IMG/VR virus record: IMGVR_UViG_3300036390_000008
Coordinates: 1 to 42,272 of that record
Strand: one strand, 5' to 3'
DNA length: 42,272 nt
From: a virus
In this document: piece by piece, positions 9,126-12,591 of the stretch
Numbering within the stretch: position 1 is the first letter of the stretch
Layout: the number at the start of each line of letters is the position of its first letter
Notes under the pieces: model-generated
The model's database searches: none
Told to the model about the DNA's origin: nothing
Seen by the model: the letters and a program-made list of their open reading frames with translations, nothing else
Program-made: the position numbers and the translations under genes

Positions 9126-9821
9126 TGGAAACTCGTTCCTAACCGCTCTCACCAACCCGATAATCGCAACCACAACGCCATCGTCGGCCTTCGCATCTCG
9201 TTTGATTATGATCGGCTTGTGGTTGGGGTTTGTGGAGCGTGGGTGAAACTCGGTGCGATCCTCATAGAGCTCAACCTGTTTGACGGACCACTCTCGCGTA
9301 TGGCCGCCGTCTCGAGTCCGCTCTACAACAACGATCATTCCGTCTCGAACCCGCACCTGGTCGGCGACATCCTCAAAAGAGACGCAGATCAACCGGTCGC
9401 CGCCCATGATCGGACGCGGCTTAAGATCGTTCATCGAGTCGCCTTCAACGTCGAATGCCATACGACGAGCGTTGGGAAAGCGCTCGTCAGGTGGCTCCCA
9501 AACACGTTCCGGCTCCGATTGGTCGAAGTCGTCCACCTCGCGAAACACGCCAGCCGCAAGCTTGCCATTAACAAGCACCGGCATCAGCTGAGGCGTAAAA
9601 ACCTGTCGCACATCGCCGGCCGGAGCCTCTTCGCCGAAATACTCAGAAGCGATGGGTATCTCGTGCGACTTTAGCCCTCGCTTTCCATTCACCAGCTTGT
9701 TGATGGCGGACGGGTGCACGCTGAGCCTCCTCGCCAGCTCACTTTGTGAGCGACCAGGCTTTTTAAGGTTCTCAATTACCCAGGTGAGCAGCGGATCTTC
9801 AGGCATGTGGATATTTCGCAC
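9120..9821 (-). CDS. S24-family (LexA/CI-like) prophage repressor
   Basis: Master repressor of lysogeny. The N-terminal helix-turn-helix is at about residues 26-50 (SQSELARRLSVHPSAINKLVNGKRG). The C-terminal S24 peptidase domain has S129 in VEGDSM and K181 in REWSVKQVE, and a putative Ala90-Gly91 cleavage site in KLAAGVF. RecA-stimulated self-cleavage, and hence SOS induction, is therefore expected from the family. The start is ambiguous: GTG at 9821 has GGAG 11 nt upstream, while ATG at 9806 gives a more typical N terminus but has no ribosome site. Operator OR3 (9805-9823) overlaps both, so the gene is probably autoregulated. Confidence 0.93.
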   Translation of the reverse strand: MRNIHMPEDPLLTWVIENLKKPGRSQSELARRLSVHPSAINKLVNGKRGLKSHEIPIASEYFGEEAPAGDVRQVFTPQLMPVLVNGKLAAGVFREVDDFDQSEPERVWEPPDERFPNARRMAFDVEGDSMNDLKPRPIMGGDRLICVSFEDVADQVRVRDGMIVVVERTRDGGHTREWSVKQVELYEDRTEFHPRSTNPNHKPIIIKRDAKADDGVVVAIIGLVRAVRNEFPL

Positions 9822-9823
9822 AG
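9805..9823. promoter_or_regulatory. Repressor operator OR3 (over repressor start)
   Basis: ATGTGGATATTTCGCACAG: one perfect half-site (TCGCACAG) and one degenerate half-site, in the same 8-3-8 frame as the other operators. It covers the start codon of the repressor, so binding here could limit repressor synthesis at high concentration. Confidence 0.55.
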
Positions 9824-9839
9824 CTATCTGTTCTCCGTC

Positions 9840-9858
9840 CTGTGCGATTGTCGCTTAG
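9840..9858. promoter_or_regulatory. Repressor operator OR2
   Basis: CTGTGCGATTGTCGCTTAG, 8-3-8 palindrome with one perfect half-site. Its centre is 35 bp from OR3 and 34 bp from OR1. The top-strand bases 9847-9852 read GACAAT on the minus strand, a possible -10 for the repressor promoter, so this site may control repressor transcription. Confidence 0.65.
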
Positions 9859-9865
9859 AAAGCAC

Positions 9866-9893
9866 TTGCCAGCCTGTGCGAAAAGCGCATAGA
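9866..9893 (+). promoter_or_regulatory. Rightward early promoter (PR-like)
   Basis: A -35 element TTGCCA (9866-9871) and a -10 element CATAGA (9888-9893) are spaced by 16 nt, with operator OR1 filling the spacer and overlapping the -10 box. This is the same architecture as the leftward promoter. The start of transcription would fall at about 9900-9901, at the ATG of the next gene, so the first message may be leaderless. Confidence 0.6.
9874..9892. promoter_or_regulatory. Repressor operator OR1
   Basis: CTGTGCGAAAAGCGCATAG, the best right-hand copy of the operator. It lies inside the rightward promoter, so repressor bound here would shut off the early rightward genes. Confidence 0.75.
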
Positions 9894-9900
9894 TAGACTT

Positions 9901-10146
9901 ATGCAGTGCGAACCAGCCACATCCATCATCACCAAGTTTGGCGGGCCCGACGCAGTGGCAGCCATTGTAGGCGCTACCTCTGGTCAAGTGCGGCGTTGGC
10001 GCCGGCCGAAGGAGCAGGGCGGCACCGGCGGTGCTGTTCCTCATTGGCATATCGCCAAGCTCATGGCTGCGGCCCAAGAACGCCGTATCAGGGTTAGGGC
10101 TGAAGACTTCCTGCCTGCGCCGTCGAAGCAGGACGCAGCAGCATGA
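9901..10146 (+). CDS. Cro-like (YdaS-type) transcriptional regulator
   Basis: 81-aa helix-turn-helix protein, first gene of the rightward early operon and divergent from the repressor, the place of Cro in lambdoid phages. The DNA-binding region is SIITKFGGPDAVAAIVG followed by TSGQVRRWRRP and VPHWHIAKLMAAAQER, a pattern shared by small YdaS/Cro-type phage regulators that recognise the same operators as the repressor. There is no Shine-Dalgarno sequence before the ATG, and the -10 box ends only 7 nt upstream, which points to translation of a leaderless message. The stop overlaps the next start as ATGA. Confidence 0.8.
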   Translation: MQCEPATSIITKFGGPDAVAAIVGATSGQVRRWRRPKEQGGTGGAVPHWHIAKLMAAAQERRIRVRAEDFLPAPSKQDAAA

Positions 10147-10493
10147 GCCGGCCTTCGGACATTCCAAACGAAACCTTCCAGCGTGCTGTGAGCTTCTGCC
10201 ATCGCTACCGCGATGCATCCAGCCAGGAAGAGATTGTAGCTCGTGTCCTGATGGCGATCGAAGGTCAGCAGGTGCGGGCAGGGCTCACACATCAGCAATT
10301 GGCTACGCTGGATTTCATCGAGAAGTACCAAGCAGAGCACCGGGTCGCACCTTCCTACGACGAGATCAAAGACGCCTTGGGCCTTGCCAGCAAGAGCGGC
10401 GTGCACCGGCTTGTTCACGGGCTGAAAGAACGTGGCGCCATTTTCATGCTCGACGGCCGCACACGCTCGATGGCACTTCGGAGGGCTGCATAG
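10143..10493 (+). CDS. Protein with LexA-type winged-helix domain
   Basis: 116-aa protein. The C-terminal two thirds match the LexA N-terminal DNA-binding domain: LTHQQLATLDFIEKYQ, a VAPSYDEIKDALGLASKSG recognition helix region, then VHRLVHGLKERGAI and a short wing with RTRSMALR. No S24 peptidase part follows, so it cannot self-cleave. The N-terminal 45 residues (FQRAVSFCHRYRDASSQEEIVARVL) are helical. It might bind LexA-like operators of the phage or host, or serve as a second early regulator. Coupled by ATGA to the Cro-like gene. Confidence 0.78.
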   Translation: MSRPSDIPNETFQRAVSFCHRYRDASSQEEIVARVLMAIEGQQVRAGLTHQQLATLDFIEKYQAEHRVAPSYDEIKDALGLASKSGVHRLVHGLKERGAIFMLDGRTRSMALRRAA

Positions 10494-11693
10494 ATGTCCG
10501 ACACCAACGTCGCCCAAGACCAGATCAAAGCCTTTGTCGATCGCATCCTTCGCATGAAGGAAGAGGCAGACGCTATCGCTTCGGACGTCAAGGAAATCTA
10601 TGCCGAAGCTAGGGCAAATGGGTTTGACAAAACCCAGATGGGCAACCTGGTCACCTACCTGCGCAAGAAGGACAAGGACGCGGACAAAGTAGCCGAGGGC
10701 GAAGCTATCTTCGACCTCTACCTTACGGCCTATCTCGGGGCGTCGGGCAAGGTTGGCACGAAACGTGCTACGCACACGTATGCGCCCGATGCCAGGGAAC
10801 AGCGATCCAAAGCTCGCCTGTCCGAGGCTATGGACGACAACAAGGCGTTCTCTGCTGAGTTGGTCGAGGCAGGGCTGATCAGCGAAGAGGCCCATGCCGA
10901 GAATGTGGCGCTGTCCGATGCTGTCGCAACGAAACTCGGGGCAGGGGTTATTAGTCCGGTGGCTGCACTCCGGGCCGATCCGGCCATGGCCATTGTCGAT
11001 CCTGCGGATCTGAAGACCAAATCCGAACCGCGGCCCGCTCCACCGGCTGCGCAGATGCAAGCTGACAAAGCGCCGGTTGACGCGGAAGTCGGTCCTGCTC
11101 CCTCGCTTGCTGGTGTCGAGGGCATCGCAGACCAGCAACCTATTCAGCCCGAAACGGCAATTGAGATGCAGAAGGCTGCTGGTGAGACAATCCAGACCGA
11201 CCAGCCGGAAGCACGGCCAGAGGGATCGCCCGAGATCGGCGGGAACCCCGAGGCCGCCCAATCCTCTCCCAAGTACGCTGCACCTGGCGTTATCACCTGG
11301 GAAAACCATCCACCTGAAGGCGTAGAGCGCAGCATCTATTCCATTGCCTTCTCGAACATGGGTCAGGATCCAGTTCTGATCGAAGACGAACTGGCCAGTG
11401 GTATAGCTCAGCCAATCGTCAAGCAGGGCAATGTCATCTTGGACGGCTGGGCCCGTTATATGATCGCCCGCAACATGCGTGAGCTCGACGGCTCTCCCCT
11501 GTCCTATGCCGTAGTCCAATACGACGGCAGCGATGTTCTGATGGACGTCATCCGCTGGAATGTTCAGGGCAGGGTGCTCACTGAACAGCAACGCCGTGCG
11601 GCCGCCCAGATGCTGAGCCGCCAACCTGAGTTCAAAGCTCGCAAGGCTGAAATTTTCGCCGCCATGGAGCTCGGAATGGAGCTCGTGCAATGA
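10494..11693 (+). CDS. GapR-like / ParB-like domain fusion protein
   Basis: 399-aa three-part protein. Residues 5-85 resemble the alphaproteobacterial nucleoid protein GapR (DUF2312): QIKAFVDRILRMKEEADAI, IYAEARANGFDKTQM and VTYLRKKDKD are the family hallmarks; free GapR is about 90 aa and binds overtwisted DNA. Residues 90-265 are low-complexity A/P/E-rich linker. Residues ~270-399 look like a ParB-type N-terminal domain (PIVKQGNVILDGWARYMIARNM, then YDGSDVLMDVIRWNVQGRVLTEQQRRAAAQML), a fold with DNA or CTP binding in ParB-family proteins. It may place or remodel phage DNA during early replication. The start directly follows the upstream stop. The domain calls are by pattern and the fusion is unusual. 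Confidence 0.78.
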   Translation: MSDTNVAQDQIKAFVDRILRMKEEADAIASDVKEIYAEARANGFDKTQMGNLVTYLRKKDKDADKVAEGEAIFDLYLTAYLGASGKVGTKRATHTYAPDAREQRSKARLSEAMDDNKAFSAELVEAGLISEEAHAENVALSDAVATKLGAGVISPVAALRADPAMAIVDPADLKTKSEPRPAPPAAQMQADKAPVDAEVGPAPSLAGVEGIADQQPIQPETAIEMQKAAGETIQTDQPEARPEGSPEIGGNPEAAQSSPKYAAPGVITWENHPPEGVERSIYSIAFSNMGQDPVLIEDELASGIAQPIVKQGNVILDGWARYMIARNMRELDGSPLSYAVVQYDGSDVLMDVIRWNVQGRVLTEQQRRAAAQMLSRQPEFKARKAEIFAAMELGMELVQ

Positions 11694-11830
11694 CCCGCGG
11701 TCGCCTCTCTGCAGATCAGTCGACCCGCCTCTGTAACTGCTTGGTGCTTGCCGCTGGCGCATGTCTGATCGTCATCGCTGCAGTTGAATTCGGATCGGCT
11801 ACGCTGCGGCTTATAGGCGGTGCGCTGTAG
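11690..11830 (+). CDS. 46-aa membrane microprotein
   Basis: Short gene coupled by ATGA to the GapR/ParB-like gene. It starts MTRGRLSADQST, has one hydrophobic helix (CLVLAAGACLIVIAAVEF, about residues 17-34) and a short tail ending LIGGAL. Predicted to be a single inner-membrane helix with a basic cytoplasmic N terminus. Function unknown. It is the last gene before a leftward gene. Confidence 0.6.
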   Translation: MTRGRLSADQSTRLCNCLVLAAGACLIVIAAVEFGSATLRLIGGAL

Positions 11831-11833
11831 ATG

Positions 11834-12079
11834 TCAGCATGCCCCATCATCAATTACAGCCAAGAAGGGACGCGCTCTGATGATGCGCATCCTTGGCTTC
11901 GAATTCGGGCGGAACTCCTCCCCGCCCGAGGGCGAGTGATCTTCATCGCAATCTCCCTCATCGAGAAGGTCATTCGCCCATTTCATCAAGTGCGGATCAA
12001 CGGTTCCAGCCGTCTTTCCGCGCAGTCCTTGCCGGCGCAGCAACTCTTTCAGTGTCTCGCTGACCGGCTCCATCGTCAT
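11834..12079 (-). CDS. Small leftward gene inside the rightward operon
   Basis: 81-aa protein (SETLKELLRRQGLRGKTAG, HLMKWANDLLDEGDCDEDH, basic C-terminal stretch RPNSKPRMRIIRARP). The composition looks protein-like, whereas the overlapping plus-strand frame 11831-12178 does not. GAGAGGG lies 7-8 nt before the ATG at 12079. Its stop is 3 nt from the stop of the upstream rightward gene, so the two converge, and it diverges from the gene at 12139. A perfect 8-bp inverted repeat lies between the divergent starts, suggesting local regulation. No family recognised; the call rests on reading frame and ribosome site. Confidence 0.5.
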   Translation of the reverse strand: MTMEPVSETLKELLRRQGLRGKTAGTVDPHLMKWANDLLDEGDCDEDHSPSGGEEFRPNSKPRMRIIRARPFLAVIDDGAC

Positions 12080-12103
12080 GCTTCTGCCCTCTCTAAAATC
12101 CCG

Positions 12104-12129
12104 CTCCGTCCTGATCACCATGGACGGAG
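12104..12129. promoter_or_regulatory. 26-bp palindrome between divergent genes
   Basis: CTCCGTCC at 12104-12111 and its exact complement GGACGGAG at 12122-12129, separated by 10 nt. The right arm contains the GGAG that serves as ribosome site for the gene at 12139. It could be a dimer operator for either divergent gene, or an RNA hairpin hiding that ribosome site in read-through transcripts. It has no T-run, so it is not a standard terminator. Confidence 0.5.
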
Positions 12130-12138
12130 TGAAAAGGG

Positions 12139-12591
12139 ATGGCGTTACCCAATTTCGGTAATGAGGTGCCCAAAGTGAGCGCCGCAACAGCGACCAAGTA
12201 CGTGCAGGAAATGGTTGTGCTGGAGACGATGACCAGCCGGACCAAGGACGCAGCGCTGAGGAAACTAGCGCGCGACTATGGGCTGACAGTCTCGCAGCTA
12301 ACCCACCTCTACAAAGCAAGAGCAAAGACTTGCGACGTGAGCTTATTCGCTCGCGTGAAGGCCGCATACCTCGACCGCTGCGCCAAGATGGCGACGAGGA
12401 TGCTGCACAAAATCGAACTGGAGGAGGCATCAGGCGGCGATGCTCATGATCAAGATCTGGTGGATCGGCTTGTTGCGATCCTGGCGGAAACTTCGACGCA
12501 AAGAGCGTCGATCAACCCGCGAGGGAAAGTAGCTCGACTTGGGTTCACTGAAGCAGATGAAAGCGCAGACCAGTCCCATTGGGGACGGTGA
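12139..12591 (+). CDS. Hypothetical helix-turn-helix-like protein
   Basis: 150-aa protein. The middle contains a segment that reads as a helix-turn-helix (ALRKLARDYGLTVSQLTHLYKARAK), followed by a long helix (ARVKAAYLDRCAKMATRMLHKIELE) and an acidic C terminus. GGAG lies 9 nt ahead of the ATG, within the palindrome at 12104-12129. Such an arrangement would allow autoregulation. Family not recognised, and a DNA-binding role is plausible but not shown. Confidence 0.65.
   Translation: MALPNFGNEVPKVSAATATKYVQEMVVLETMTSRTKDAALRKLARDYGLTVSQLTHLYKARAKTCDVSLFARVKAAYLDRCAKMATRMLHKIELEEASGGDAHDQDLVDRLVAILAETSTQRASINPRGKVARLGFTEADESADQSHWGR

What the first reader, a model, noticed from the sequence alone, without database searches (positions are those of the whole stretch)
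10494..11693. GapR-like domain fused to a ParB-like domain in one early protein
Residues 5-85 look like GapR, the alphaproteobacterial protein that binds overtwisted DNA ahead of replication forks and transcription. The last ~130 residues look like a ParB-type N-terminal domain. A low-complexity linker joins them. A phage protein that senses DNA twist through one end and carries a ParB-like partner domain would be an interesting replication or DNA-handling device. It is expressed early, among replication and methylase genes.
Basis: partly seen in the sequence, partly recalled or inferred. Interest (0 to 1): 0.62.

Follow-up and report, generated by a model that had tools for sequence, protein, structure and literature searches.

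The report
Phage GapR–ParB-like fusion protein
A temperate phage of rhizobia-like bacteria makes, very early in its gene programme, one protein that joins the bacterial DNA-twist-binding protein GapR to a ParB-type nucleotide-binding domain; related phages keep this design, swap its modules, and have more than once taken the GapR part from their own hosts.

Summary
ORF 10494-11693 (399 aa) has a GapR domain at residues 7-79 (Pfam PF10073, E=2.7e-17; GapR crystal structures, E=6e-15), a helical hairpin (98-149), a disordered linker (~165-262) and a C-terminal ParB/sulfiredoxin-type fold (264-392). Pfam ParB_N misses this last part; a 33-member family profile, an AlphaFold model (pLDDT 88; best PDB match pNOB8 ParB N-domain, probability 0.99) and alignment with host chromosomal ParB all place it there. 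The ParB phosphate motif GxxR (here DGWARY) is invariant. The Glu of GERR and of Box III is lost, and there is no HTH, dimerisation domain or ParA motif: not a partition ParB. 26 further loci, nearly all Rhizobiales phages or prophages, share GapR-linker-ParB-like, often just downstream of repressor/cro. N-terminal modules (three GapR subtypes, three others) and C-terminal modules (ParB-like or Cys-rich) are shuffled. Host gapR was captured at least about three times; in Shinella daejeonensis the prophage module is 71/71 identical to host GapR. I found no published GapR-ParB fusion. Best reading: an early phage protein that uses GapR to sit on positively supercoiled DNA and presents an NTP-binding ParB-fold domain there. 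Binding and NTP use are untested.

The parts
10494..11693 (+). GapR / helical hairpin / disordered linker / ParB-like fusion protein, 399 aa
   Evidence: ORF and translation; domain hits; models
10506..10742 (+). GapR domain, residues 5-83 (helices 5-41, 46-61, 63-83); subtype II with KTxMGxLV in place of the basic KxLRKV motif
   Evidence: PF10073 E=2.7e-17; PDB GapR E=5.7e-15; tree; AF2 secondary structure
10785..10940 (+). Helical hairpin module, residues 98-149 ('EAMDDNKAFSAELVEAGLISEEAHAENVALSDAVA'), also found in relatives that lack the ParB-like end
   Evidence: Conserved in L002-L013 and L023; AF2 pLDDT about 78-95
10986..11279 (+). Low-complexity Ala/Pro-rich disordered linker, about residues 165-262
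   Evidence: Composition; pLDDT below 50 over most of 173-256
11283..11669 (+). ParB/sulfiredoxin-type fold, residues 264-392
   Evidence: A2 family; Foldseek to pNOB8 ParB-N; hhalign to host ParB E=2e-6
11445..11456 (+). GxxR phosphate-binding motif, residues 318-321 (Gly-Trp-Ala-Arg) inside LDGWARY
   Evidence: G and R invariant in 33/33 members; motif role from PMC12704722
9120..9821 (-). S24/HTH phage repressor, divergent from the operon
   Evidence: PF00717 and PF01381
9901..10146 (+). Cro-like repressor, first gene of the operon
   Evidence: P22_Cro PF14549, weak, E=0.0021; position
10143..10493 (+). LexA-type winged-helix protein; overlaps cro and ends one base before the fusion gene
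   Evidence: PF01726 E=8.6e-11
11690..11830 (+). 46-aa ORF whose start overlaps the fusion gene's stop (ATGA)
   Evidence: ORF list; 74% identical counterpart just downstream of the fusion in L018

Best explanation
An early phage DNA-handling protein. Shown: GapR at the N-terminus, a ParB-CTPase-type fold at the C-terminus, and a conserved modular family in Rhizobiales temperate phages. Inferred: the GapR part forms the usual tetramer around positively supercoiled DNA ahead of RNA polymerase and replication forks. This puts up to four ParB-fold domains, on ~100-residue flexible tethers, where the template is being overwound. The ParB-fold domain binds an NTP through GxxR and, in its NTP state, pairs with other copies or recruits a phage or host partner, so that early phage transcription or replication is helped (for example by bridging DNA or bringing in topoisomerase). 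GapR replaces the missing HTH as the DNA-binding part.
For: GapR homology. Tetramer-interface residues of GapR (I78, L81, Y82 in PMC7498317) are I72, L75, Y76 here; Y76 is invariant in the 30 aligned modules. The C-terminal tetramerisation region is what topology recognition needs (PMC8360656). ParB fold. GxxR invariant in 33/33; R-to-A in GxxR was the negative control for NTP binding across the fold (PMC12704722). The same architecture is found in 26 further loci, many beside repressor/cro. Both ends are under purifying selection: dN/dS about 0.03 for GapR against L021 and about 0.17 for the ParB-like end against L017.
Against: In this member the GapR DNA contacts K34, K56, K59, K60 and R63 are A25, T47, G50, N51 and Y55; only K42, K49 (as Arg), K66 and structural R65 are kept (alignment; residues). 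Canonical CTP-pocket residues are lost (Glu of GERR becomes Trp; Glu of Box III becomes Trp). Only 11 of 28 purified ParB-fold proteins bound an NTP in the published survey, so fold alone does not prove binding. Alternative N- and C-terminal modules occur at the same position, so neither domain is obligatory. No experiment exists.
Confidence: 0.45

Rival explanations
1. Host-GapR hijack: the phage GapR module co-assembles with the host's essential GapR, so the tethered ParB-like (or Cys-rich) domain is delivered to host GapR complexes and redirects or blocks host replication and topology control.
For: The host gapR gene has been captured repeatedly as the N-module: the Shinella daejeonensis prophage module is 71/71 aa (202/213 nt) identical to its own host's GapR, and L028 is 79/80 identical to Devosia soli GapR. 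The tree forces at least 3 host/fused label changes. All 8 host genomes carry other GapR genes.
Against: The window's own GapR module belongs to a divergent phage-only clade (12 rows, support 100/100), about 52% identical to Devosia host GapR, so co-assembly is doubtful here. Capture could equally be for DNA or topoisomerase contacts.
Confidence: 0.25
2. The ParB-like domain no longer uses nucleotide; it is a protein-interaction or dimerisation module and the whole protein is an early nucleoid-type scaffold.
For: GERR Glu and Box III Glu are lost; the domain is interchangeable with a small Cys-rich module in relatives.
Against: GxxR, the preceding Asp and the C-motif strand-loop are invariant or nearly so across 33 diverse members, which is hard to explain without a ligand.
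Confidence: 0.17
3. A transcription regulator of the lysis-lysogeny switch or early operon (antisilencer or anti-repressor type, as KorB or VirB are ParB-derived regulators).
For: Sits just downstream of cro and next to a LexA-type winged helix; KorB is the second Foldseek hit.
Against: No HTH and no sequence-specific DNA-binding part; GapR contacts the backbone without base readout (PMC7498317). The KorB hit is weak (E=0.67, probability 0.47).
Confidence: 0.1

Closest known systems
GapR (Caulobacter CCNA_03428; Pfam PF10073)
   Same: Three-helix GapR domain, full-length profile match, tetramer-interface residues kept
   Different: Fused to ~315 further residues; subtype II hinge with a short insertion; several DNA-contacting lysines lost; well below NCBIfam's equivalog cut-off (58 against 140 bits)
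ParB-CTPase fold proteins (chromosomal ParB, Noc, KorB, pNOB8 ParB; survey PMC12704722)
   Same: Same predicted fold, GxxR phosphate motif, Box I-like strand/loop; fusions to lineage-specific domains in prophages are a known theme
   Different: No HTH, C-terminal dimerisation domain or ParA motif; GERR and Box III Glu lost; missed by PF02195; GapR fusion not mentioned in that paper's main text
ParB-like + MT-A70 methyltransferase proteins of Rhizobiales (L078, L083, L084)
   Same: Nearest cellular sequence relatives of the C-terminal domain in the order survey (profile E down to 7e-17); DGRNRY motif in the same place
   Different: ParB-like domain is N-terminal and fused to a methyltransferase; no GapR
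Sinorhizobium phage phiLM21 p022 and Devosia sp. SL43 plasmid protein WP_236900009.1
   Same: Same family, same position in the early operon; the Devosia one has GapR plus the ParB-like end
   Different: phiLM21 carries another N-terminal module, a possible remote GapR relative (hhalign E=1.5e-5)
SbnI / SerK free serine kinases
   Same: DGxxR[YF] signature like SbnI DGVHRF
   Different: Only a weak profile match to SbnI (E=0.73); the His of that motif is mostly Ala/Ser/Asn here

Membership tests
GapR (PF10073) | Match to the family profile over its curated cut-off | tested here: met
   62.6 bits against 22.6, profile positions 1-70 of 72
GapR (PF10073) | Three-helix architecture with tetramer-interface residues (I78, L81, Y82) | tested here: met
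   Helices 5-41, 46-61, 63-83; I72, L75, Y76 by the alignment; residues from PMC7498317
GapR (PF10073) | Basic residues contacting the DNA backbone (K34, K42, K49, K56, K59, K60, R63, K66) | tested here: inconclusive
   K42, K49 (as Arg) and K66 kept; K34, K56, K59, K60 and R63 replaced; other Lys nearby (K46, K59, K61)
GapR (PF10073) | Preference for overtwisted DNA | not testable with these tools
   Needs DNA topology assays
Nucleoid-associated GapR equivalog (NF052541) | Score over the equivalog cut-off | tested here: not met
   58 against 140 bits
ParB-CTPase fold | PF02195 match over its cut-off | tested here: not met
   No match for the window protein; 2 of 33 relatives, best E 0.029
ParB-CTPase fold | ParB/Srx fold | tested here: met
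   Model pLDDT 88.4; pNOB8 ParB-N probability 0.99, TM 0.59, though E=0.058; BFVD ParB/Srx proteins
ParB-CTPase fold | Sequence homology to ParB N-domains | tested here: met
   hhalign to host ParB E=2e-6, probability 89 (single pair); PHROG ParB-like families in many relatives
ParB-CTPase fold | Box II GxxR phosphate motif | tested here: met
   Invariant in 33 of 33
Canonical ParB CTPase | Box II Glu (GERR) and Box III Glu-Asn | tested here: not met
   Both Glu aligned to Trp; the Asn position is Asn or Gln
Canonical ParB CTPase | HTH and C-terminal dimerisation domain after the CTPase fold | tested here: not met
   The protein ends about 7 residues after the fold; no HTH hit
Canonical ParB CTPase | ParA-binding motif (L/F/I)G(K/R)G(L/F/I) | tested here: not met
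   Absent
Canonical ParB CTPase | CTP binding and hydrolysis | not testable with these tools
   Needs DRaCALA/ITC and hydrolysis assays

The most novel reading that the evidence does not exclude
A ParB-type NTP-gated clamp that is loaded by DNA topology instead of by a parS sequence: GapR recognises overtwisted DNA, the ParB-fold domains close on NTP binding, and the clamp is left where forks or polymerases have overwound the DNA, with phages re-acquiring host GapR to keep this compatible with each host.
Probability: 0.12. Interest if true: 0.85.

Novelty: new variant of a known kind. Interest (0 to 1): 0.58.

Why it matters
GapR is the best known natural sensor of positive supercoiling, and the ParB-CTPase fold has just been recognised as a widely reused NTP switch. 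A conserved family joining the two would make it directly testable whether an NTP switch can be addressed to DNA by its twist. Repeated capture of an essential host nucleoid protein by phages, as a swappable module, points to host replication or topology control as a target of early infection in Rhizobiales. The family is largely invisible to PF02195, so Pfam-based surveys of ParB fusions are likely to miss it.

Tried and rejected
PF02195, PHROG and PDB searches with the window protein alone do not reveal the ParB-like end; relatives and a model were needed. Alternative N-modules as hidden GapR: only the phiLM21 type is supported (hhalign E=1.5e-5, probability 79, three sequences); the ITRKG and LSSKF types are not. 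Sigma-70 promoter scan of 9700-12200: none found, not informative for an alphaproteobacterial-type phage. Canonical partition role considered and rejected: no ParA motif, no HTH. Foldseek with the full-length model recovered only the ParB-like part, because GapR and the hairpin are plain helices. A first dN/dS for L023 against its host was out of frame and was replaced by the in-frame comparison.

Full report
What is there. The window is a virus record of 42,272 bases. The ORF at 10494-11693 encodes 399 aa. Residues 7-79 match GapR (PF10073, E=2.7e-17) and the crystallised GapR proteins (E=5.7e-15 and weaker). Residues 98-149 form a helical hairpin, about 165-262 are a disordered Ala/Pro-rich linker, and 264-392 are a compact alpha/beta domain.

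The C-terminal domain. The window sequence alone is invisible to PF02195. Relatives were gathered from viral and genome contigs and aligned (A2, 33 sequences). Members match ParB-like PHROGs down to 1.4e-5. A profile of A2 finds the ParB-like domain of MT-A70 methyltransferase proteins at E=7e-17; two of the relatives found that way match PF02195 weakly (0.0018 and 0.0066, below cut-off). A2 aligns with chromosomal and plasmid-type ParB from Devosia, Shinella and Ensifer hosts at E=2e-6, with DGWAR over AGERR. The AlphaFold model (pLDDT 88.4) matches the pNOB8 ParB N-domain (probability 0.99) and, weakly, KorB, and many viral ParB/Srx models. A profile made only from relatives under 46% identical finds the window domain at 2.8e-30, with no hits in 2000 shuffles. 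The fold assignment is therefore firm, although each PDB Foldseek E-value alone is modest.

Motifs. The ParB survey of Kaljevic et al. 2025 (PMC12704722) takes GxxR as the phosphate motif and used R-to-A there as the non-binding control. G and R are invariant in all 33 members. The Glu of GERR and of Box III are replaced by Trp. [quoted passage not shown] NTP binding is thus plausible but unproven, and its nucleotide cannot be predicted.

The GapR domain. PMC7498317 lists DNA contacts K34, K42, K49, K56, K59, K60, R63 and K66. In the window protein three of these positions stay basic and five do not. The tetramer residues I78, L81 and Y82 are kept. PMC8360656 links the C-terminal tetramerisation region to topology recognition. 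Relatives fall into three GapR subtypes (canonical, KTxMGxLV, KAxRxAFR). The window is of the second, a phage-only clade.

A modular family. In 47 distinct loci (window included; sampling is biased by the queries), 33 start with GapR, 35 end with the ParB-like fold and 27 have both. Others pair GapR with a small Cys-rich end (for example CRNPEACAGYGDKHCHAC in L003) or put another helical module in front of the ParB-like end. In many loci the gene sits just downstream of a divergent repressor and cro, often next to a LexA-type winged helix and upstream of methyltransferase and DnaA_C/HTH genes. In the window the genes abut or overlap by 4 bases, which suggests one operon. In 297 genomes of the same order, 2 had a clear family member, so it is a phage trait and not a core gene.

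Capture of host gapR. All eight host genomes with such a prophage carry other GapR genes. The N-module of the Shinella daejeonensis prophage is identical over 71 residues to that host's own GapR, with 11 silent differences in 213 bases; DNA similarity covers only the GapR part. L028 is 79/80 identical to Devosia soli GapR. Rhizobium/Ensifer-type modules are up to about 92% identical to theirs. The tree needs six label changes and starred branches force at least three. The direction host-to-phage is inferred from gapR being a regular host gene.

Mechanism. I think the most likely role is an early protein that GapR places on positively supercoiled DNA, where tethered ParB-fold domains, probably in an NTP-dependent way, pair up or recruit a partner. 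Shown: domains, order, conservation, genomic position. Inferred: tetramer, DNA preference, NTP use, partner. The main rival, given the host-identical modules in some relatives, is co-assembly with host GapR to redirect host replication; it is weaker for the window's own divergent module.

Literature. Searches for GapR with phage, ParB or prophage found no GapR-ParB fusion. PMC12185513 reports a GapR gene in an Erythrobacter phage as the first in a phage genome; 82 phage records matched the window protein, most of them through GapR, including Sinorhizobium phage PBC5 annotated DUF2312. One Devosia plasmid member is already labelled 'GapR family DNA-binding domain-containing protein'. Mention in supplements or in subscription papers cannot be excluded.

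Verdict. A real, conserved, previously undescribed (as far as I could search) domain fusion of two known kinds; a new variant, not a new category.

Noticed in passing
L040:1512-3314: The family member here is 600 aa because an HNH/AP2-like homing-endonuclease-type segment appears to be inserted in the disordered linker, leaving the frame open (read from the sequence; not searched by profile).
   Followed up: no
L003-L013, L016 (C-terminal ~30 aa): Relatives replace the ParB-like end by a short Cys/His cluster (C-x4-C...HC-x2-C), possibly a zinc-binding knuckle; Pfam gave no match for the one member scanned (L016 protein).
   Followed up: partly
L014:4323-4616, L041, L049: The phiLM21-type N-terminal module (weak DUF6074 match) may be a remote GapR relative: hhalign E=1.5e-5 against the GapR profile, from only three sequences.
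   Followed up: partly
PHROG phrog_4212, matched by window 10494-11693: A phage family of unknown function carries GapR at its C-terminus (profile positions 276-348 of 353), so GapR fusions in phages occur in other domain orders too.
   Followed up: no
L021:4323-5231: In Devosia aurantiaca the closest GapR relative (94%) has a ParB-like end that breaks off after about 74 residues, near a contig end: a decayed prophage copy or a sequencing frameshift.
   Followed up: no
window 9820-9910: The repressor-cro intergenic region holds TGTGCGA-type repeats with partial palindromy (for example CCTGTGCGAAAAGCGCATAGATA), likely operators.
   Followed up: no
[quoted passage not shown] phage records with DUF2312/GapR-like proteins, such as Sinorhizobium phage PBC5, are in the phage collection.
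   Followed up: partly
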